Source of the DNA: Alphaproteobacteria bacterium
GTDB taxonomy: Bacteria; Pseudomonadota; Alphaproteobacteria; UBA9219
Reading direction: 5' to 3'
Assembly (NCBI GenBank): GCA_028692635.1
Contig: JAQUWX010000005.1
Location: 19,516-55,823, forward strand
Length of the DNA: 36,308 bases
In this document: in pieces, positions 4,986 through 35,357 of the stretch
Layout: each line of letters opens with the position of its first letter
Numbering within the stretch: position 1 is the stretch's first letter
The notes under the pieces: model-generated
What the model saw: only the letters and a program-made list of their open reading frames with translations
What the model was told of the DNA's origin: nothing
Databases searched by the model: none
Made by a program: the position numbers and the translations under genes

Positions 4986-5626
4986 TTGAGGATGAGGACG
5001 TAAGAAGGCTCTTTGCGCAGCCTTGCAAATTCGTCCTCGCCGCGGCGGCGCCGGAACAATTTCCGGCAACGGCAAACGCGCCTCTCGAGGTTGCTCTTAT
5101 AGGGAGATCGAACGTCGGAAAATCATCGCTTATAAACGCGCTTACCGGTCGAAAGAGCCTAGCCCGCACATCGAACACTCCGGGCCGCACGCAACAGATA
5201 GTCTTCTTCGATCTGGCGCAAAGACTGATGCTGGTCGATCTTCCAGGATACGGGCATGCGTCCGCGCCTACTACCATGTCCGAGAAATGGAACAGCCTGG
5301 TCAGATATTACATACAGACAAGGCCGAACCTGCGTCTAGTATGTCTGTTATTGGACAGCCGACATGGCGCTCTTGCCAATGACATAGACATGATGAACTT
5401 TCTTGATCGCGCCGCGATAAGTTATCAGATAATCATGACTAAAGCCGACCAACTTCGCGCAGCAGAGCGAGATAACAAAGCGCACCAGGTCGAAGCCATG
5501 CTAAGCAAACATCCAGCGGCTCGCGCAAAAATAATATCGACCAGCGCGGAGAAATTGGTGGGATTACAGGAAGTGCAGCAAGCCATTGCCGCGTTCGCCT
5601 TGCCGGAGAAAACTAAAACCCGTTAG
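4982..5626 (+). CDS. engB: EngB/YihA/YsxC ribosome-biogenesis GTPase
   Basis: This 214-aa GTPase is needed for large-subunit ribosome maturation and cell division. G1 is GRSNVGKSS (residues 41-49), G2 is at TSNTPGRTQ, G3 is DLPGYGHA, and G4 is TKADQL. The family-specific EKW segment after G3 is present (MSEKWNSLVRYYI). Length is normal. The ATG overlaps the yidC stop by 4 bp, so translation is coupled to yidC. The 3' end overlaps the convergent LysE-family gene by 14 bp. Confidence 0.96.
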   Translation: MIEDEDVRRLFAQPCKFVLAAAAPEQFPATANAPLEVALIGRSNVGKSSLINALTGRKSLARTSNTPGRTQQIVFFDLAQRLMLVDLPGYGHASAPTTMSEKWNSLVRYYIQTRPNLRLVCLLLDSRHGALANDIDMMNFLDRAAISYQIIMTKADQLRAAERDNKAHQVEAMLSKHPAARAKIISTSAEKLVGLQEVQQAIAAFALPEKTKTR

Positions 5627-6275
5627 GGGTTTGAATATCGAACAAATACCCCAGCACCCCAGCGGAAAGAGCCCATCCTGCTATGCCGATCAGGCCTATC
5701 GCCGTGATACGGTTAACCCATAGGACGGTGTTTTCGGTGAAGTGATGCCGGATGAGCGAAATTCCGCCATTAAGCAGCACCCACCATCCAGTAGCCCCCA
5801 GGAATATGCCTGCCACAAGAGTCAAAGCATCCAGATGGCTGCGAAGCTCACCGAACGCGGCGACGACAGCCAAAGTCCCAAACAGCGTCACAGGATTGGT
5901 CATAGTAATGACAATGCCGCTTATGAACGCCTTCAAAGCGCTCCCCACGCCGACTTCCATATCCGCTCGTTCTTGCAAAGGATGAGGCCTATCGAACCAC
6001 GAATGTATGGCAACGGCGAAAAGGAAAACGCCGCCTATAATGTGTATGGAATGATTATATTTTGTTATCCATTCCGTTATCTGGGAAATACCAAGCGCGG
6101 CGATGGAGGCAAAAAAAGCATCGGTAAAGGCCGACCCAAAACCGGTAGCAAGCCCGAGCAGCGGCCCACGCTGTATAGTGCGGCGCATGCACAGGAGTCC
6201 AATAGGTCCGACCGGAGCCGCGATCATCAGCCCGAGAATTAAACCACGATATAAAACCCCTAAGTGCTCGAACAA
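5613..6275 (-). CDS. LysE/RhtB-family amino-acid exporter
   Basis: A 220-aa polytopic inner-membrane protein of the LysE translocator superfamily, which exports amino acids or related metabolites. The N-terminal signature RGLILGLMIAAPVGPIGLLCMRRTIQRGPLLGLATGFGSAFTDAFF is the conserved first two helices with the APVGP motif. Six hydrophobic segments are recognisable, and ITMTNPVTLFG matches the conserved T-NP motif of helix 4. It lies 28 bp downstream of the KAS II gene on the same strand and may be co-transcribed with lpxD-acp-fabF. Substrate cannot be told from sequence. Confidence 0.88.
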   Translation of the reverse strand: MFEHLGVLYRGLILGLMIAAPVGPIGLLCMRRTIQRGPLLGLATGFGSAFTDAFFASIAALGISQITEWITKYNHSIHIIGGVFLFAVAIHSWFDRPHPLQERADMEVGVGSALKAFISGIVITMTNPVTLFGTLAVVAAFGELRSHLDALTLVAGIFLGATGWWVLLNGGISLIRHHFTENTVLWVNRITAIGLIGIAGWALSAGVLGYLFDIQTPNGF

Positions 6276-15082: not shown

Positions 15083-16615
15083 ATGGATATTCGCGTAACG
15101 GAAATTTCCTCGATTTTAAAACAGCAGATCGGCCAAATGGGCATTGGAGCCGAGCTGGCCGAGGTTGGACAGGTATTGTCAGTCGGTGACGGAGTCGCTC
15201 GCATATATGGGCTAGACAACGTCCGCGCTGGTGAAATGGTGGAATTTCAGAATGGCGTTAAGGGCATGGCCCTCAACCTCGAGAGCGATAGCGTAGGCGT
15301 CGTCGTCTTCGGTGACGACCGCAGCATCGGCGAGGGAGACAGCGTAAAGCGCACGGAATCAATCGTCGAAGTTCCGGTCGGCAAAGGTCTTCTCGGTCGC
15401 GTAGTTGACGGTCTTGGCAATCCTATCGACGGCAAAGGTCCTCTGAAGGACGTAAAGCCCATGCGCGTCGAAGTCAAAGCGCCCGGAATTATACCAAGGC
15501 AGTCGGTCAACGAGCCTGTGCAGACTGGACTTAAAGCTATCGACTCTCTGGTTCCGATTGGTCGCGGCCAACGCGAGCTTATAATTGGAGATCGCCAGAC
15601 CGGTAAAACCGCCGTCGTTATCGACGCTTTCCTTAATCAGAGAACTGTCAACAAAGGAAACGACGAATCCAAAAAGCTATACTGCATATATGTAGCCATC
15701 GGACAAAAGCGCTCTACGGTCGCTCAGATCGTCAAGACGCTTGAAGATGCAGGCGCGATGGAATACTCCATCGTCGTCGCGGCAACGGCCTCCGAACCGG
15801 CTCCGCTTCAATATATCGCGCCATACACCGGATGCGTGATGGGCGAGTTCTTCCGCGATAACGGAATGCATGCTCTGATCGTTTATGACGATTTGTCAAA
15901 GCAAGCCGTAGCTTATCGCCAAATGTCATTGCTGCTTCGTCGTCCTCCTGGCCGCGAAGCTTATCCTGGCGACGTGTTCTATTTACATTCACGTCTTCTG
16001 GAACGCGCCGCGAAGATGAACAAGGATAACGGCAGCGGATCGCTGACCGCCCTCCCCATCATCGAAACTCAAGCCGGTGACGTTACCGCATACATCCCAA
16101 CCAACGTGATCTCGATCACTGATGGACAAATATTCCTTGAAACTGGCCTTTTCTATAAGGGCGTACGTCCAGCCATCAATGTCGGATTGTCCGTCAGCCG
16201 CGTCGGTTCATCCGCCCAAATCAAGGCAATGAAACAAGTGGCAGGATCAATCAAGCTTGAGCTGGCGCAATACCGCGAAATGGAATCCTTCTCGCAGTTT
16301 GCATCTGACCTCGACCCCTCTACGCAAAAGCTGCTTAATCGCGGCAAACGCCTGACGGAATTGCTGAAGCAACCGCAGTATGCTCCGTTGGCTGTGGAAG
16401 AACAGGTCTGCGTCATTTACTCCGGCGTCAAAGGATATCTTGATACAGTCAAAGCCGACGACGTAACTCGCTATGAACACGGGCTACTTAACGAGCTGCG
16501 CGGCCCGGCGGGCAAAGACGTGCTCGCAGCCGTCCGCACCGACAAACAGCTTAAACCGGAAACTGAAGACAAATTGAAAAAATTGCTGGAAGACTACAGC
16601 AAACGGTTTGTCTAA
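15083..16615 (+). CDS. atpA: ATP synthase F1 subunit alpha
   Basis: The 510-aa alpha subunit carries the non-catalytic nucleotide sites of F1. Visible features are [12 protein letters not shown] in the beta-barrel domain, the P-loop GDRQTGKT at about residues 169-176, the lineage-typical [21 protein letters not shown], and the alpha-subunit signature [14 protein letters not shown]. Length is standard. It is preceded by GGGAGG and coupled to atpH. It is followed after 25 bp by a strong terminator, and no atpG, atpD or atpC follows; the usual atpHAGDC operon is split here. Confidence 0.98.
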
Positions 16616-16640
16616 AAAACAAAGCTGATAAATAAAGAAA

Positions 16641-16671
16641 AGCCGCGAGGGAACAACCCCGCGGCTTTTTT
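16641..16671 (+). terminator. Rho-independent terminator ending the atpHA transcript
   Basis: AGCCGCGAGGG pairs with CCCCGCGGCT around AACAA, followed by seven T (16665-16671). It lies 25 bp after the atpA stop and 26 bp before the stop of the convergent gene, so it ends the F1 transcript after two genes. Confidence 0.93.
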
Positions 16672-16697
16672 ATTTGATGTTTTATAAGGCGAAGTTT

Positions 16698-17060
16698 TTA
16701 TGCATTAAACGCCAGCAAATTGGCATGATTAATTCCAACAAACCTCGTCTTGTCAACACCACGAGTGTACATGAGGCGATTAACCGCCAGTTTGGGATTG
16801 TTGGTTTGTAAAGACAGCAGATTAGAACAAACTCCACCACTCATCTTCCCCCTACCTCTTTCTCTTGGATCAAGAGGGACCAAAGAAACATGCCCTATGT
16901 TATTATCAATAACAGCTCTAACCAAAGGATCTGTTGATTTTCCATCCATAGAGAACTGCGCATATATTTCCCCCGCGCTCACTCCTTTAATTAAAGGAAT
17001 AAGGATCTCTCCCCCCACATCCTTAAATTTTTTACACTCAACACATTTGGACTCACACAT
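16698..17060 (-). CDS. Small protein of unknown function with N-terminal Cys motif
   Basis: A 120-aa protein I do not recognise. It begins MCESKCVECKKF, a C-x3-C-x2-C cluster that could bind metal or an Fe-S cluster; one more Cys occurs in GGVCSNLL. No signal peptide or membrane segment is visible. A textbook Shine-Dalgarno (AAGGAG, 10 nt before ATG 17060) argues it is a real gene. It is convergent with atpA, with the atpHA terminator between them, and stands between the core block and tRNA-Ser. Confidence 0.65.
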   Translation of the reverse strand: MCESKCVECKKFKDVGGEILIPLIKGVSAGEIYAQFSMDGKSTDPLVRAVIDNNIGHVSLVPLDPRERGRGKMSGGVCSNLLSLQTNNPKLAVNRLMYTRGVDKTRFVGINHANLLAFNA

Positions 17061-17159
17061 GATGATTATTCTCCTTCATTACACAAAGCCGACAATCTAA
17101 AAGGGCATGACGGCACTCCCCTCCTCAAGCCTCGCGGCAATGACAGAAACACATGAAGC

Positions 17160-17319
17160 CAACCTGATTGTTAAGGGAATAAAAAAGCTCCCAAAAGCAA
17201 AATGGCAACCACAATCAGGTAACCACAAGCCCGGAAGCCATGTGGCGCTTTAGCTGTTCATAACGCGGCAGCAATCTGCTCCTGTCAAATCCCGCAGGTT
17301 CCAATAACGCCAGGAACCC
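17160..17319 (-). ncRNA. Candidate structured small RNA, unassigned
   Basis: On the minus strand, TTGACA (plus-strand 17350-17355) is separated by 18 bp from TTTAAT (17326-17331), placing a transcript start near 17319. The predicted RNA opens with a hairpin GGTTCC/GGAACC (17297-17318). Near its end, CCACA/TGTGG and AGCTAAAGC/GCTTT-AGCT pairings precede six U (17181-17186). A further 10-bp inverted repeat, ACCTGATTGT/ACAATCAGGT (17162-17171 and 17211-17220), flanks that end. The length of about 140-160 nt is in the range of alphaproteobacterial 6S RNA, but I cannot match it to any family by eye. Confidence 0.35.
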
Positions 17320-17325
17320 GCCCCC

Positions 17326-17355
17326 ATTAAATCAAATACAAAGAACGCCTGTCAA
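17326..17355 (-). promoter_or_regulatory. Sigma70-like promoter for the candidate RNA
   Basis: Minus strand TTGACA, 18-bp spacer, TTTAAT. It points into the structured stretch and away from tRNA-Ser. Confidence 0.4.
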
Positions 17356-17498
17356 TCGGTTTAAAAAGTGCCCCAAAAAGCCAAAAAACAGCCATTAATC
17401 ATCAAAATAGTGTTTTAAACCCCCAACAAACCAGCTAGATAATCATCCATCAGATAAGTATGTATATGCTAAGAATAATAGAGTATCGAAGCAGTTAC

Positions 17499-17590
17499 GG
17501 AGGGGTGGCCGAGTGGTTGAAGGCGATCGCCTGGAAAGCGGTTATACGGATAAAACTGTATCGTGAGTTCGAATCTCATCCCCTCCGCCA
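17499..17590 (+). tRNA. tRNA-Ser (anticodon GGA)
   Basis: A class II tRNA of 92 nt. The acceptor stem is GGAGGGG paired with CCCCTCC, with discriminator G and encoded CCA (17588-17590). The D-arm is TGGCCGAGTGGTTGAAGGC. Anticodon GGA is at 17533-17535 in CTGGAAA. A long serine-type variable arm (TATACGGATAAAACTGTATC) precedes the T-arm GTTCGAATCTC. It reads UCC/UCU codons. It is the last recognisable core gene before the mobile region. Confidence 0.97.
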
Positions 17591-17597
17591 ATTACCG

Positions 17598-17625
17598 TTA
17601 CAAAACGGGATTCTCCGTTTTGTAA
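17598..17625. repeat. Perfect inverted repeat just after tRNA-Ser
   Basis: TTACAAAACGG (17598-17608), loop GATTCT, CCGTTTTGTAA (17615-17625), beginning 8 bp after the tRNA CCA end. It may end the tRNA transcript, although it has no T-run, or form part of an attachment region. Confidence 0.7.
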
Positions 17626-17746
17626 GCGTGGCACGAAAACGCAAGGAAATGCGGTGTTTTTGCATTTTGCAACTGGACTCCGTGCGCCCCAAATTCACCC
17701 CAAAATACCTTTTTTGCCCTCTCTCTTGGCCACTTCTCTCTGTGGT

Positions 17747-17774
17747 AACTGGACTTTCAGAGAAAAGTCCAGTT
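17747..17774. repeat. Perfect inverted repeat AACTGGACTTT/AAAGTCCAGTT
   Basis: An 11-bp stem with a 6-nt loop. A further copy of AACTGGACT lies at 17671-17679, and AAGTCCAGTT recurs at 22013-22022. Role unknown. Confidence 0.7.
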
Positions 17775-18070
17775 CCTAATCCGTCAATGACTTAGCCCAC
17801 TTTTTCGTTTTCGCTCAAATGGTAGGCGGATGATGCGTATGTTCGTGTTGTGGATTACACAATCCACAAAAAACGGATTTGGGTTAAGGGTTTGGTTAGA
17901 AAGGTGACTTCATAAGACTATTGGTACATAGTTTGCGTCAAGAAGTTCAGCACATCATCTTTGCCGATACCAGACCAAAGGAAGAGGCTATCAGATATTT
18001 GAGCATTCTACTCGGCAGGCCGTCTGCGAGGGGAACAGGCTGGTGATGGTGATTGCAAAAGGAGTTTGTA

Positions 18071-18574
18071 ATGAGTGGGGACAACCTCATCGACCCTAAG
18101 AAGAGAATGGAAGAGCTGTCCGTGGCATACGTTCATGCCGTGGCATCTCATTGTGGCTATGATGCGAATAGGCCACAGGTTGACCATGACAGTGTAGACA
18201 TAATCATCAAAAGTTCTGCCGGGAAAAAACCGAGCATCGATGTTCAATTGAAGGCAACAACAAAAATTGGTGCAAATGGCCCAGACAGTTTTTCCTTCCC
18301 ATTACCCATTAAAAACTACGATGATTTGCGTGGAGATAATATTAATCCGAGAATACTGATCGTCTTGTGTATGCCAAGCCAGCAAGATGACTGGATAATG
18401 CACACAACGGATGAATTAGCTCTACGTAAGTGTGCTTATTGGGTATCATTGCGAGGATTGCCAGACACCACAAACAAGGAATCTGTCAGTATTAATATAC
18501 CTGCAGCCAATGCTTTTTCACCACAAGCATTGAATGATCTCATGCAAAAAGCAGATCGCAGGGAGGATTTATGA
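18071..18574 (+). CDS. DUF4365-like protein with PD-(D/E)XK-type nuclease signature
   Basis: ATG 18071 is chosen over an upstream TTG because a full AAAAGGAG Shine-Dalgarno precedes it by 7 nt; the product is 167 aa. The N-terminal helix RMEELSVAYVHAVASHCGYDA leads to VDHDSVDIIIKSS and then DVQLKATT. This D ... (E/Q)-x-K pattern is that of DUF4365 proteins, which have a restriction-endonuclease-like fold. The later ILIVLCMPSQQDDWIMHTTDE and AYWVSLRGLP also fit DUF4365. The usual Glu of the E-x-K pair is Gln here, which is common in this family. The gene is coupled (ATGA) to the next gene; together they look like a two-gene cargo cassette. A defence role is inference. Confidence 0.8.
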   Translation: MSGDNLIDPKKRMEELSVAYVHAVASHCGYDANRPQVDHDSVDIIIKSSAGKKPSIDVQLKATTKIGANGPDSFSFPLPIKNYDDLRGDNINPRILIVLCMPSQQDDWIMHTTDELALRKCAYWVSLRGLPDTTNKESVSINIPAANAFSPQALNDLMQKADRREDL

Positions 18575-19716
18575 AAACAATCATCACAGATAGAGCTGTT
18601 CTGGAGGAGATTTCTAGCCTTGAATTAAAGGCATATCTTGTAGCGCAAGGATGGATGACTGCAGAAAAAATCAAAGACAAAGCTCTTGTTTTGACGAAGG
18701 AAGGGCTTGGGACCGAATTAATCCTCCCCTTAAGAAAGGATCTTGGGGATTTTGTATTGCGGATGTCCGAACTTCTCTCGACAGTTTCTGAGATTGAAAA
18801 TCGCTCAATGCTGTCTTTGATTGATGACATAAACAAATCTGGCGTTGATGTTCTCAGAGTAAGAATGACCGAAGGAACAGCTGACGGAACAATCCCGCTC
18901 TCTGCAACAACTGATGTTTTTTATAACTCAAGAGAAATGCTTTTAGCTGCAGCTTGTGCTGCCAAAAGACCGAGCAAGGTTTTTGGAACAAAGAAAAGTG
19001 AAGAAGCTTATGATTACTTAAAAAAAGTGCGCGTTGGCCAGACTGAATATGGAAGCTTCATTTTGACATTTCTATCCCCTGTCGCACCAAAACTTACCCC
19101 AGATCAACCAACATTTGATGGTATGGAGGTTGAGGAAGACCCCTTTGAGCGATTGACAACAAAAACACTACTAAGGGGGCTCAATGCAGCGAAAGACGCT
19201 GCTATAGGAGCCTTATCTGATGGAGGCATAGCCGCTTTCGAGAATGCCGTGTCTTTTGGGGTTAGCGCCAATTTATGTGATGCAATCTCAAATATTGTTA
19301 ACAGCGCAGGCAAAGCTGAAATTTCATTGACTTGGGCCAAAACTCGACCCGTTTTAAAGCAGACAATGAAGAACGTTGTGAGTTTTGATCGTCAAACGGT
19401 TGAAGTGATCGCCGAAGCAGCGCGAAATTTCAGGCGCTCAGAACCTTTGCTTAACCAACCCATTACTGGTTGGGTTTATCAATTACGCCAAGAACAAAGC
19501 GGCGATCCCGAGGGGACAATTAGAATTTCAACCACCATCAATGAAAAACCAAGAAAATTAAAGATTACTCTTTCGACAGAAGATTACCATCAGGCTGCCG
19601 TCGCTCATAATAGCGGAAAGCACATTTCTTTGGAGGGCGATCTCTATCTACAGGGGAAAGCAACGGAACTGCGCAATCCAAGAAATCTCGTCGTAATAGA
19701 TCAAGACGACGACTAA
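18571..19716 (+). CDS. Unnamed 381-aa protein paired with the DUF4365-like gene
   Basis: I do not recognise a named family. The N-terminal third contains ELKAYLVAQGW, TELILPLRKDLGDFVLRMSELLSTVSEIE and SGVDVLRVRM. Next come DGTIPLSATTDVFYNSREMLLAAACAAKRP and a conserved-looking KVRVGQTEYGSFILTFLSPV. Residues of about 300-375 are predicted beta-rich and end in ISLEGDLYLQGKATELRNPRNLVVI, an OB-fold-like strand pattern. No signal peptide, membrane helix or Walker motif is seen. The protein is soluble and probably cytoplasmic. The start overlaps the DUF4365-like stop by 4 bp, so the two products are made together, consistent with a nuclease plus sensor or scaffold. Confidence 0.75.
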   Translation: MKTIITDRAVLEEISSLELKAYLVAQGWMTAEKIKDKALVLTKEGLGTELILPLRKDLGDFVLRMSELLSTVSEIENRSMLSLIDDINKSGVDVLRVRMTEGTADGTIPLSATTDVFYNSREMLLAAACAAKRPSKVFGTKKSEEAYDYLKKVRVGQTEYGSFILTFLSPVAPKLTPDQPTFDGMEVEEDPFERLTTKTLLRGLNAAKDAAIGALSDGGIAAFENAVSFGVSANLCDAISNIVNSAGKAEISLTWAKTRPVLKQTMKNVVSFDRQTVEVIAEAARNFRRSEPLLNQPITGWVYQLRQEQSGDPEGTIRISTTINEKPRKLKITLSTEDYHQAAVAHNSGKHISLEGDLYLQGKATELRNPRNLVVIDQDDD

Positions 19717-19750: not shown

Positions 19751-20149
19751 TTACAAGCCCGTTTGATTTTCTAGAGAAAACTTCGTCTGCTCGTCCCAGC
19801 CCAAAGATGTCAGATTGTATAAATGCTGCAGCGTCAGATAGCGCGGCTGGGTGTTTTCGAGAATGGCTTCGACGATGGTTGGAGCGAGGAACGTGAGCGA
19901 AAGTTGACGCAGCACATAGGCATCATCCTGCCGGTTTTTACGGGCGAAGTGTGTGATGCTGTCATAAGGGCCGCTTTCAATTTCCTTTCGCCACAAATGC
20001 GCCCGCACGAGAGCCTTTTGCATTGTCTGCAATTGTGGCGTTGCGCCTGCGGCTGGCGTTGTCGCGCCGTCGGGCGTGATCAAATATTTCCGTCCCGCGC
20101 GGCGTCTCGGTTTAAGCGGCAGGAGGATAACAATCGTGTCCGTGTTCAT
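19751..20149 (-). CDS. ParB-HTH-like protein, serine-recombinase accessory
   Basis: A 132-aa basic protein. The central segment HFARKNRQDDAYVLRQLSLTFLAPTIVEAILE resembles the DNA-binding helix-turn-helix of ParB/KorB-type proteins (pattern YVxRxLxLxxLAPxIVEAI). The following YLTLQHLYNLTSLGWDEQ fits the end of the same motif. Its start lies 38 bp inside the recombinase 3' end, so it is co-expressed with it. Genes of this type accompany large serine recombinases and DUF2924 in Alphaproteobacteria; I infer a role in recombinase control or directionality. Its 3' end faces the 381-aa gene, with 34 bp between them. Confidence 0.75.
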   Translation of the reverse strand: MNTDTIVILLPLKPRRRAGRKYLITPDGATTPAAGATPQLQTMQKALVRAHLWRKEIESGPYDSITHFARKNRQDDAYVLRQLSLTFLAPTIVEAILENTQPRYLTLQHLYNLTSLGWDEQTKFSLENQTGL

Positions 20150-33836: not shown

Positions 33837-33953
33837 GGGCCTTACCCGATTATTTATTGAAAAACAAACAGTTATGCATGCTTGGCAGGTGGATTCCGAC
33901 GCGTGGATTCCTTAGCCAAGGTGGCCACTCGGCTGTTTCGTTCACGGATCCAC

Positions 33954-35357
33954 ATGCCCAACGTCATTTTGCCCAAGGAGCTGGAGATTTGGCCGACTGA
34001 TCGGCTGAAACCTTATGCCCGCAATCCGCGCACGCATAACACGGCGCAGATCGCGCAGTTGGCGGGAAGCATGATCGAGAACGGGTTCACCAATCCGCTT
34101 CTTGTGGTCAGCGACGGCACAATCATCGCTGGGCATGGGCGGTTGGAAGCGGCAAAACAGGTCGGGCTGAAGGAAGTTCCGGTCATCCTGCTTGATCACC
34201 TAACGCCCGCGCAACGCCGCGCCTACGTCATCGCCGACAACCAACTCGCCCTGCAAGCGGGATGGGACGACGCTCTCTTGGCGGAAGAGATGCACGCGCT
34301 GAACGGACTTGGGTTCGATCTATCACTCACAGGGTTCGACGAAAAAGAAATCGATCAAATCCTCGCCCCCTTGCAGGATGAGCAGGAGAAGCCGTCCGAG
34401 GCTGGCGGCAAGGAAGACGAAGCGCCTGCGCCGCCCAAGCATCCCGTCTCGCGCGAAGGCGACGTCTGGCTGCTTGGCAACCATCGCTTGCTTTGCGGCG
34501 ACAGCACGGATCCCGCCGCCATTGCGCGTTTGATGGGCGGGAAGCAAGCGCACTTGCTGTTCACGTCGCCGCCCTATGGCAACCAGCGCGATTACACGAC
34601 CGGAGGCATCAGCGATTGGGACAAGCTGATGCAAGGCGTATTTTCCGTATTGCCGATGCGCGACGATGGTCAGGTCTTGGTCAATCTCGGCCAGATCCAC
34701 AAAGACGGCGAATGGCAGCCTTACTGGCAGGATTGGATCGCGTGGATGCGCGAGAAAAACTGGCGGCGCTTCGGCTGGTACGTTTGGGATCAGGGGCCGG
34801 GTCTTCCGGGTGATTGGAACGGACGCTTCGCCCCCAGCTTCGAGTTCGTCTTTCATTTCAACAAGACGCCGCGCAAACCCAACAAGATCGTGCCCTGCAA
34901 ATGGGCGGGGCACGTCATGCACGAAGACGAAGGCGGCTTGCGCGAAAAAGATGGCACGGTTGGCAAATGGACGCACGCCGAACAGCCCGTTCAGGAAAAC
35001 AAGATACCGGACAACGTGATCCGCATTACGCGCCACAAAGCGCGCGGCGTCGAAACCGAACACCCCGCCGTGTTTCCCGTGCGTTTGCCCGCGTTCATCA
35101 TGCAGGCCTACAGCGCCGAGGGCGAAATTGTTTATGAACCCTTCTGCGGATCGGGAACGACCATCATCGCTGGCGAACAAACAGGCCGCGCTGTTCGGGC
35201 GATGGAGCTTGCACCCGCTTATGTCGACGTGGCCGTGCGCCGATGGCGCGAGATATTCCCGAACGCGCCCCTTGCGCTTGAAGGCGAAGGAATGAGTTTT
35301 GAAGAAACCGCCGCCGCGCGCGGCATTAATTTGACCCAAGAAAGCGAAGCCGCATGA
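33954..35357 (+). CDS. ParB-domain DNA methyltransferase fusion (TSPPY type)
   Basis: A 467-aa protein. ATG 33954 (MPNVILPKELEIWPTDRLKPYARNPRTH) begins a ParB/Srx-type N-domain that includes IIAGHGRLEAAKQVG and IADNQLALQAGWD. After an acidic linker (140-165), the methylase domain has GDVWLLGNHRLLCGDS, motif IV TSPPYG (204-209), and motif I FCGSGT (397-402). Motif order IV then I is the beta class, which makes N4-methylcytosine or N6-methyladenine. No restriction partner is adjacent, so it is probably an orphan phage methylase protecting phage DNA. It overlaps a second, similar gene by 4 bp. Confidence 0.93.
   Translation: MPNVILPKELEIWPTDRLKPYARNPRTHNTAQIAQLAGSMIENGFTNPLLVVSDGTIIAGHGRLEAAKQVGLKEVPVILLDHLTPAQRRAYVIADNQLALQAGWDDALLAEEMHALNGLGFDLSLTGFDEKEIDQILAPLQDEQEKPSEAGGKEDEAPAPPKHPVSREGDVWLLGNHRLLCGDSTDPAAIARLMGGKQAHLLFTSPPYGNQRDYTTGGISDWDKLMQGVFSVLPMRDDGQVLVNLGQIHKDGEWQPYWQDWIAWMREKNWRRFGWYVWDQGPGLPGDWNGRFAPSFEFVFHFNKTPRKPNKIVPCKWAGHVMHEDEGGLREKDGTVGKWTHAEQPVQENKIPDNVIRITRHKARGVETEHPAVFPVRLPAFIMQAYSAEGEIVYEPFCGSGTTIIAGEQTGRAVRAMELAPAYVDVAVRRWREIFPNAPLALEGEGMSFEETAAARGINLTQESEAA

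What the first reader, a model, noticed from the sequence alone, without database searches (positions are those of the whole stretch)
18071..19716. Two-gene cassette (DUF4365-like nuclease plus unnamed 381-aa protein) as a candidate defence system
Seen: two genes coupled by ATGA, AT-richer than their surroundings, placed between tRNA-Ser and a serine recombinase, with their own strong Shine-Dalgarno and orientation opposite to the neighbouring operon. Known: DUF4365 proteins have a restriction-nuclease-like fold. Inference: the partner, with VRVGQTEYGSF and an OB-like C-terminus, is a sensor or effector partner, and the pair protects the lysogen against other phages. I cannot match the second protein to any named system.
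Basis: partly seen in the sequence, partly recalled or inferred. Interest (0 to 1): 0.68.

Follow-up and report, generated by a model that had tools for sequence, protein, structure and literature searches.

The report
Two-gene phage-defence cargo of a prophage
A virus dormant in a bacterial chromosome carries, in a slot where close relatives of the virus carry other known phage-defence genes, a two-gene nuclease module already listed in a defence database as an untested candidate, so it most likely protects the host cell against rival viruses, although nobody has yet shown this.

Summary
A (18071-18574, 167 aa, DUF4365) and B (18571-19716, 381 aa) overlap by ATGA. The pair is not nameless: it matches PADLOC-DB candidate PDC-M02 (A 2.6e-59, B 2.2e-118), unpublished, with no paper found. 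A has a PD-(D/E)XK fold closest to the SPARDA DREN nuclease, with the D-QxK triad intact (D43, Q59, K61). B has three parts: an N-terminal domain (1-90), a middle domain with the VGQTEYGSF motif (91-291) and a C-terminal OB fold. Cyanobacterial plasmids carry a short B without the middle domain, still coupled to A. In 93 homologous loci from many phyla, A lies directly before B in 85, 69 of them with the same 4-base overlap; A and B distances correlate (r = 0.81).

The strongest new evidence is positional. Four related prophages share the flanks on both sides (17499-17833 and 19785 onward) but hold other cargo in the 1.95-kb slot: IetAS, a type II restriction-modification-like pair, an LmuB/ABC-3C pair, and one unknown gene.

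Most likely this is a prophage-borne defence module in which B senses nucleic acid and controls nuclease A. Defence is likely, the mechanism is inferred, and neither was tested.

The parts
17499..17590 (+). tRNA-Ser(GGA); its 3' end is the probable attachment site of the prophage
   Evidence: ARAGORN, Rfam. In relative G318:C2 the homology begins at the last few bases of the tRNA; 18 related genomes show a tRNA-Ser match that stops at the tRNA end.
17591..17833 (.). Constant left segment of the prophage, shared by four related prophages
   Evidence: 85-95% identical blocks in L136, L181, L182, L183
17834..19784 (.). Exchangeable cargo slot; here filled by the A/B cassette
   Evidence: Similarity to four related prophages stops at 17833-17843 and resumes at 19785-19787; they hold other genes between the same borders
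18059..18064 (+). Shine-Dalgarno sequence AAGGAG of A
   Evidence: Sequence, 6 nt before ATG 18071
18071..18574 (+). A: 167-aa DUF4365 / PDC-M02A PD-(D/E)XK nuclease; catalytic residues D43, Q59, K61
18571..19716 (+). B: 381-aa PDC-M02B partner, translationally coupled to A by ATGA
18571..18840 (+). B residues 1-90: N-terminal domain, proposed docking site for A
   Evidence: Kept in the short cyanobacterial B and in the B remnant of L008 beside A; helix-strand boundary at 89/92 in the model
18841..19443 (+). B residues 91-291: middle domain with VGQTEYGSF and GVSANLC motifs; absent from short B
19444..19698 (+). B residues 292-376: C-terminal OB (SSB-like) fold
   Evidence: Model, Foldseek PDB, kept in short B
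19751..20149 (-). 132-aa recombinase-associated protein; its 3' end is the right border of the slot
   Evidence: phrog_14161; conserved in relatives except for the last codons
20112..21497 (-). Large serine recombinase of the prophage
   Evidence: Pfam Resolvase, Recombinase, Zn_ribbon_recom; 83-98% identical copies in relatives

Best explanation
The cassette is prophage cargo that defends the lysogen against other mobile DNA, a member of the unpublished candidate family PDC-M02. A is a metal-dependent PD-(D/E)XK nuclease that is probably silent on its own. B binds A through its N-terminal domain and binds nucleic acid, most likely single-stranded DNA or a replication or recombination intermediate of the invader, through its OB domain. 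The middle domain gates or tunes the response. Binding gathers A into an active oligomer that cuts DNA, which either destroys the invader or kills the infected cell. Shown here: fold and conserved catalytic triad of A, the OB fold and three-part layout of B, conserved coupling of the genes, and placement in a slot that related prophages fill with known defence systems. Inferred: docking, the ligand, activation by oligomerisation, and the outcome for the cell.
For: Both proteins match PDC-M02 over their full length. A is directly upstream of B in 85 of 93 loci, 69 with a 4-base overlap, and A and B distances correlate (r = 0.81, permutation maximum 0.23). A model: pLDDT 93.8, best PDB matches are SPARDA DREN domains, 1.2e-7; Q59 and K61 invariant and D43 in 69 of 70, the same D-QxK set as NbaSPARDA D41/Q60/K62, where the DREN domain alone showed no detectable activity and works as a tetramer (PMC12205087). 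B model: pLDDT 93.4, C-terminal OB/SSB-like fold. Short B in 17 cyanobacterial plasmid records = domains 1 and 3 only. Slot: same flanks with IetAS, a type II RM-like pair, an LmuB-like/ABC-3C pair, or an unknown gene in four related prophages. Neighbours of homologues match more defence models than control stretches, 127 against 41.
Against: No protection or toxicity data. PADLOC's listing is a candidate listing, so the match itself does not show defence. OB-fold matches have weak E-values (best 0.004) and do not say whether the ligand is ssDNA, RNA or protein. The neighbourhood count is of redundant models, not of proteins. In cyanobacterial plasmids the pair sits beside parA, which also fits plasmid maintenance or competition. 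B without A in four loci is unexplained.
Confidence: 0.55

Rival explanations
1. Restriction-like system: B is the DNA-recognition subunit and A the cleavage subunit, cutting invading DNA by sequence or by a base modification (type IV-like), without sensing replication intermediates and without killing the cell.
For: A aligns with the EcoRV active site and has a PD-(D/E)XK fold. In L036 B sits between hsdS-like and HsdR genes and in L098 behind a methylase-like gene and Vsr. Another occupant of the slot is RM-like.
Against: No methyltransferase accompanies the pair in the slot; no DNA-recognition domain other than the OB fold was found in B. The closest relatives of A are nonspecific effectors (PMC10810196).
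Confidence: 0.2
2. Competition between mobile elements: the pair eliminates or excludes rival plasmids or prophages, or stabilises its own replicon, rather than acting on lytic phages.
For: In Nostoc and Tolypothrix plasmids A and short B directly follow parA and a small gene in what looks like one operon. Homologues are on plasmids (21 records for B) and prophages. IetAS, in the same slot in a relative, was first described from my own knowledge as a plasmid incompatibility-exclusion system.
Against: Most homologues found lie on chromosomal or unassigned contigs without partition genes. This rival overlaps with defence, since the same nuclease could act on both.
Confidence: 0.15
3. Two-gene toxin-antitoxin module: A is a toxic nuclease and B its antitoxin, kept for addiction.
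For: Small coupled operon on mobile elements; nuclease next to a larger partner.
Against: B is large, well folded in three domains and about as conserved as A, unlike typical small antitoxins; B survives without A in four loci. The isolated DREN domain of SPARDA showed no detectable nuclease activity (PMC12205087).
Confidence: 0.06
4. Phage DNA metabolism: the pair takes part in replication or recombination of the prophage itself.
For: A's fold also resembles Hjc resolvases, B has an SSB-like OB fold, and the prophage has a recombination and replication block.
Against: Related prophages, one with a 98% identical recombinase, lack the pair and hold other cargo in its place. It is oriented against the recombinase operon, and the prophage already encodes a RuvC-like resolvase.
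Confidence: 0.04

Closest known systems
PADLOC-DB candidate PDC-M02 (PDC-M02A + PDC-M02B)
   Same: Both proteins, full length, same order and coupling.
   Different: Nothing that would exclude membership. PDC-M02 is unpublished and untested, so it gives a label and no mechanism (PMC11811056).
SPARDA (short prokaryotic Argonaute with DREN/DUF4365-APAZ)
   Same: Nuclease fold and D-QxK catalytic set of A; two-gene operon with a partner protein.
   Different: A has no APAZ domain and B is not an Argonaute; no guide machinery is encoded in the cassette.
EcoRV and other PD-(D/E)XK enzymes (Hjc resolvases)
   Same: Core fold and active-site position of A.
   Different: Q in place of the second acidic residue; no full-length sequence relationship.
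SSB and other OB-fold nucleic-acid-binding proteins
   Same: Fold of B residues 292-376.
   Different: Only one of three domains; ligand unknown; 8-22% identity.
IetAS, Lamassu-like/ABC-3C and type II RM-like cargo in sister prophages
   Same: Same insertion slot with the same flanks.
   Different: Unrelated proteins; they share a place and probably a role, not ancestry.

Membership tests
PDC-M02 (PADLOC candidate) | PDC-M02A and PDC-M02B models both matched over full length | tested here: met
   A residues 7-165 of 167, 2.6e-59; B residues 1-379 of 381, 2.2e-118
PDC-M02 (PADLOC candidate) | The two genes adjacent in the order A-B | tested here: met
   ATGA overlap here; A directly upstream in 85 of 93 loci
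PDC-M02 (PADLOC candidate) | Protects against phages | not testable with these tools
   No experiment, and no paper mentions the system
PD-(D/E)XK nuclease, DUF4365/DREN type (A) | Fold and D...(D/E/Q)xK catalytic residues conserved | tested here: met
   DUF4365 5.3e-22; Foldseek 1.2e-7 to SPARDA DREN; D43 69/70, Q59 70/70, K61 70/70
SPARDA | APAZ domain fused to the nuclease | tested here: not met
   A is 167 aa and DUF4365 only
SPARDA | Short Argonaute (MID-PIWI) partner | tested here: not met
   B shows no Argonaute match by profile or fold
OB-fold nucleic-acid-binding proteins (C-terminal part of B) | OB-barrel topology | tested here: met
   Foldseek probability about 1.0 for SSB, PolC, Stn1-Ten1 and others, best E 0.004
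OB-fold nucleic-acid-binding proteins (C-terminal part of B) | Binds single-stranded nucleic acid | not testable with these tools
   Needs a binding assay
Two-gene toxin-antitoxin | Toxicity of one gene neutralised by the other | not testable with these tools
   Needs expression tests; B without A in four loci argues against it
DUF6575 proteins | Match to the Pfam DUF6575 profile | tested here: not met
   None of 18 B proteins matched at 0.1; only a partial fold hit in BFVD

The most novel reading that the evidence does not exclude
PDC-M02 is a mechanistically new kind of immune module: a DREN-type nuclease that works without Argonaute and is controlled by an OB-fold partner whose N-terminal domain docks the nuclease and whose OB domain senses invader nucleic acid without a guide. 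The cyanobacterial A plus short B would be its minimal core, and the VGQTEYGSF middle domain an added sensor.
Probability: 0.35. Interest if true: 0.75.

Novelty: new member of a known kind. Interest (0 to 1): 0.5.

Why it matters
PDC-M02 is widespread (Pseudomonadota, Actinomycetota, Bacillota, Cyanobacteriota, Chloroflexota, Acidobacteriota, Spirochaetota and others) but has no known mechanism. The slot comparison gives a reason, independent of the database label, to treat it as defence: the same insertion place of one prophage family holds IetAS, an RM-like pair and an LmuB-like pair. The domain dissection, including a natural short form lacking the middle domain, makes the mechanism testable with few constructs. 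The slot itself, next to the attachment site and with sharp borders, is a place to look for further unknown defence genes; one 170-aa gene there matched nothing in Pfam or PADLOC.

Tried and rejected
Pattern scans with the single protein B found nothing in genome or viral contigs; a five-sequence alignment was needed. An 18-sequence alignment was too diverse to scan with. A link of B to DUF6575, suggested by one Foldseek hit in BFVD (DUF6575 is part of a system found in an E. coli defence screen, PMC9519451), was not supported: no Pfam DUF6575 match among 18 B proteins, and the family was too rare in the phylum sample to build a profile. B as an Argonaute-like partner: no match. The B middle domain alone against the PDB: only chance-level hits. 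Promoter and terminator scan: not above shuffles. Rfam: only the tRNA. The other end of the prophage could not be examined because the contig ends with the window and the tRNA sequence occurs once in the assembly.

Full report
Observation. The two ORFs, their ATGA overlap, the tRNA-Ser, the Shine-Dalgarno sequence and the opposite orientation of the recombinase operon are as described. The cassette has 43% G+C against 51% for the atp genes to the left and 56% for the phage genes to the right; the atpA-tRNA spacer is equally AT-rich. The window is one end of a 55,823-base contig of a 1.87-Mb assembly. It is probably alphaproteobacterial: a 'same class' genome, G260, has its match at the same coordinates as Tistrella mobilis plasmid pTM3.

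Identity. A is DUF4365 (5.3e-22). PADLOC-DB names the pair PDC-M02A (2.6e-59) and PDC-M02B (2.2e-118). PDC systems are described as unpublished candidates of the PADLOC authors (PMC11811056; 'phage defence candidate' also in PMC11514479). No paper in the searched library mentions PDC-M02. B has no Pfam or NCBIfam family and one clearly matching PHROG of unknown function.

The two genes are one unit. With profiles of A and B, 93 loci from genome and viral contigs were examined. A was detected in 86 and lies directly upstream (-23 to +123 bases) in 85; in 69 the overlap is exactly 4 bases. In the 86th, L099, a short B-like piece lies beside A and the main B ORF is 2.6 kb further on, with an ORF that looks like a transposase between. 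Seven lack a detected A: L062 starts at a contig end, L108 and L109 carry the same B protein on two viral contigs, and L036, L063, L091 and L098 have B without A. In L036 B lies between an hsdS-like gene and an HsdR homologue; in L098 it follows a methylase-like gene and a Vsr nuclease. Pairwise distances of A and B over 66 loci correlate with r = 0.81; the highest of 1000 permutations was 0.23. The family is patchy (6 of 289 genomes of the class) and spans many phyla.

A. The model has pLDDT 93.8. Its closest solved relatives are DREN domains of SPARDA (1.2e-7), then Hjc resolvases and EcoRV. Q59 and K61 are invariant and D43 nearly so, and they align with the active-site residues of EcoRV (the EcoRV residues D74, D90, K92 are from my own knowledge). 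In SPARDA the catalytic residues are D41, Q60 and K62, the isolated DREN domain has no detectable activity, and tetramerisation on the filament activates it (PMC12205087). The DUF4365-APAZ protein of TmuRE-Ago degrades DNA nonspecifically after activation (PMC10810196). A therefore looks like a competent nuclease that needs a partner. The system is not SPARDA: A has no APAZ domain and B is not an Argonaute.

B. The model has pLDDT 93.4. The best Foldseek matches in the PDB cover only the C-terminal OB fold, with high probability but weak E-values. Cyanobacterial plasmids carry a short B of 175-180 aa that aligns to profile positions 1-90 and 292-375 with the middle missing. It is in 17 plasmid records, diverged down to about 41% identity, and in the four loci examined it follows A with the same 4-base overlap. 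One further locus, L008, has A followed by a protein keeping only the first domain. The boundaries match the secondary-structure breaks of the model. I infer that residues 1-90 dock A, that the OB domain binds nucleic acid, and that the middle domain (VGQTEYGSF, GVSANLC) adds a function that some lineages do without. Conserved residues include W28, D60, T158, G161 and A345.

Location. The right part of the window encodes phage early proteins: a RuvC-like resolvase, a Sak4-like protein, a helicase, a Cas4-type exonuclease, a primase-helicase and a ParB-methyltransferase. Recombinases 80-98% identical to the one here were found in G292, G315 and G318. Four prophages there align with the window from the tRNA, or from its 3' end in G318:C2, to 17833-17843, then lose all similarity and resume at 19785-19787. 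Between these borders lie: IetA and IetS in G318:C142 (4.8e-153, 1.2e-295); a C5 cytosine methylase and a restriction-enzyme-like ATPase in G315:C217; an LmuB-like ATPase (7e-40) with an ABC-3C middle component (2.4e-45) in G318:C2; and an unknown 170-aa ORF in G292:C23. The A/B cassette is therefore exchangeable cargo, and three of the four alternatives match defence families. This is the best evidence for a defence role that does not rest on the PADLOC label of the pair itself.

Neighbourhood of homologues. Among 145 neighbouring proteins of 20 homologous loci, 127 PADLOC models matched at 1e-10, including DrmA, DrmB, type I methylase and specificity subunits, AbiEi and RtcR; among 145 proteins from control stretches of the same contigs, 41 models matched. 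Models are redundant and genes were called by a simple script, so this is suggestive only.

Mechanism and rivals. The most likely mechanism is a two-protein, nucleic-acid-triggered nuclease. A restriction-like system, a replicon-competition module, a toxin-antitoxin pair and phage DNA metabolism are weighed as rivals. Defence or element competition of some kind I put near 0.85; the particular mechanism near 0.5. Nothing here demonstrates protection.

Novelty. The locus is a new member of a catalogued but uncharacterised candidate family.

Noticed in passing
L014:5953-6480, L185:2980-3507, L186:3001-3543, L187:2980-3507: Cyanobacterial plasmids carry a short B (175-180 aa) made of the first and last domain of B only, coupled to A; in three of the four the pair directly follows parA and a small gene.
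   Followed up: partly
L136:5153-6118: A related prophage has in the same slot only small ORFs, among them one of 170 aa (5161-5673, minus) without Pfam or PADLOC match: a possible unknown defence gene.
   Followed up: no
L098:6333-9137 and L036:6102-12498: B occurs without A directly behind a methylase-like gene and a Vsr endonuclease (L098), and between hsdS-like and HsdR genes (L036); B may work with other nucleases.
   Followed up: partly
17499-17590 and L183: The prophage border appears to lie at the 3' end of a tRNA-Ser gene although its recombinase is a large serine recombinase, which as far as I know is an unusual target for that class.
   Followed up: partly
15083-17498: atpH and atpA are not followed by atpG here; the only atpG found is on another contig (G000:C43:37401-38270), so the ATP synthase operon seems to be split.
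   Followed up: no
17747-17774: Inverted repeat AACTGGACTTTCAGAGAAAAGTCCAGTT, with similar copies elsewhere in the genome (contigs C38, twice, and C102).
   Followed up: no
17241-17295: A stretch of about 55 bases between atpA and the tRNA that recurs at 72-95% identity in many related genomes, sometimes twice per contig: probably a repeat element.
   Followed up: no
33882-35357: ParB-like domain fused to a DNA methyltransferase, encoded in the prophage.
   Followed up: no
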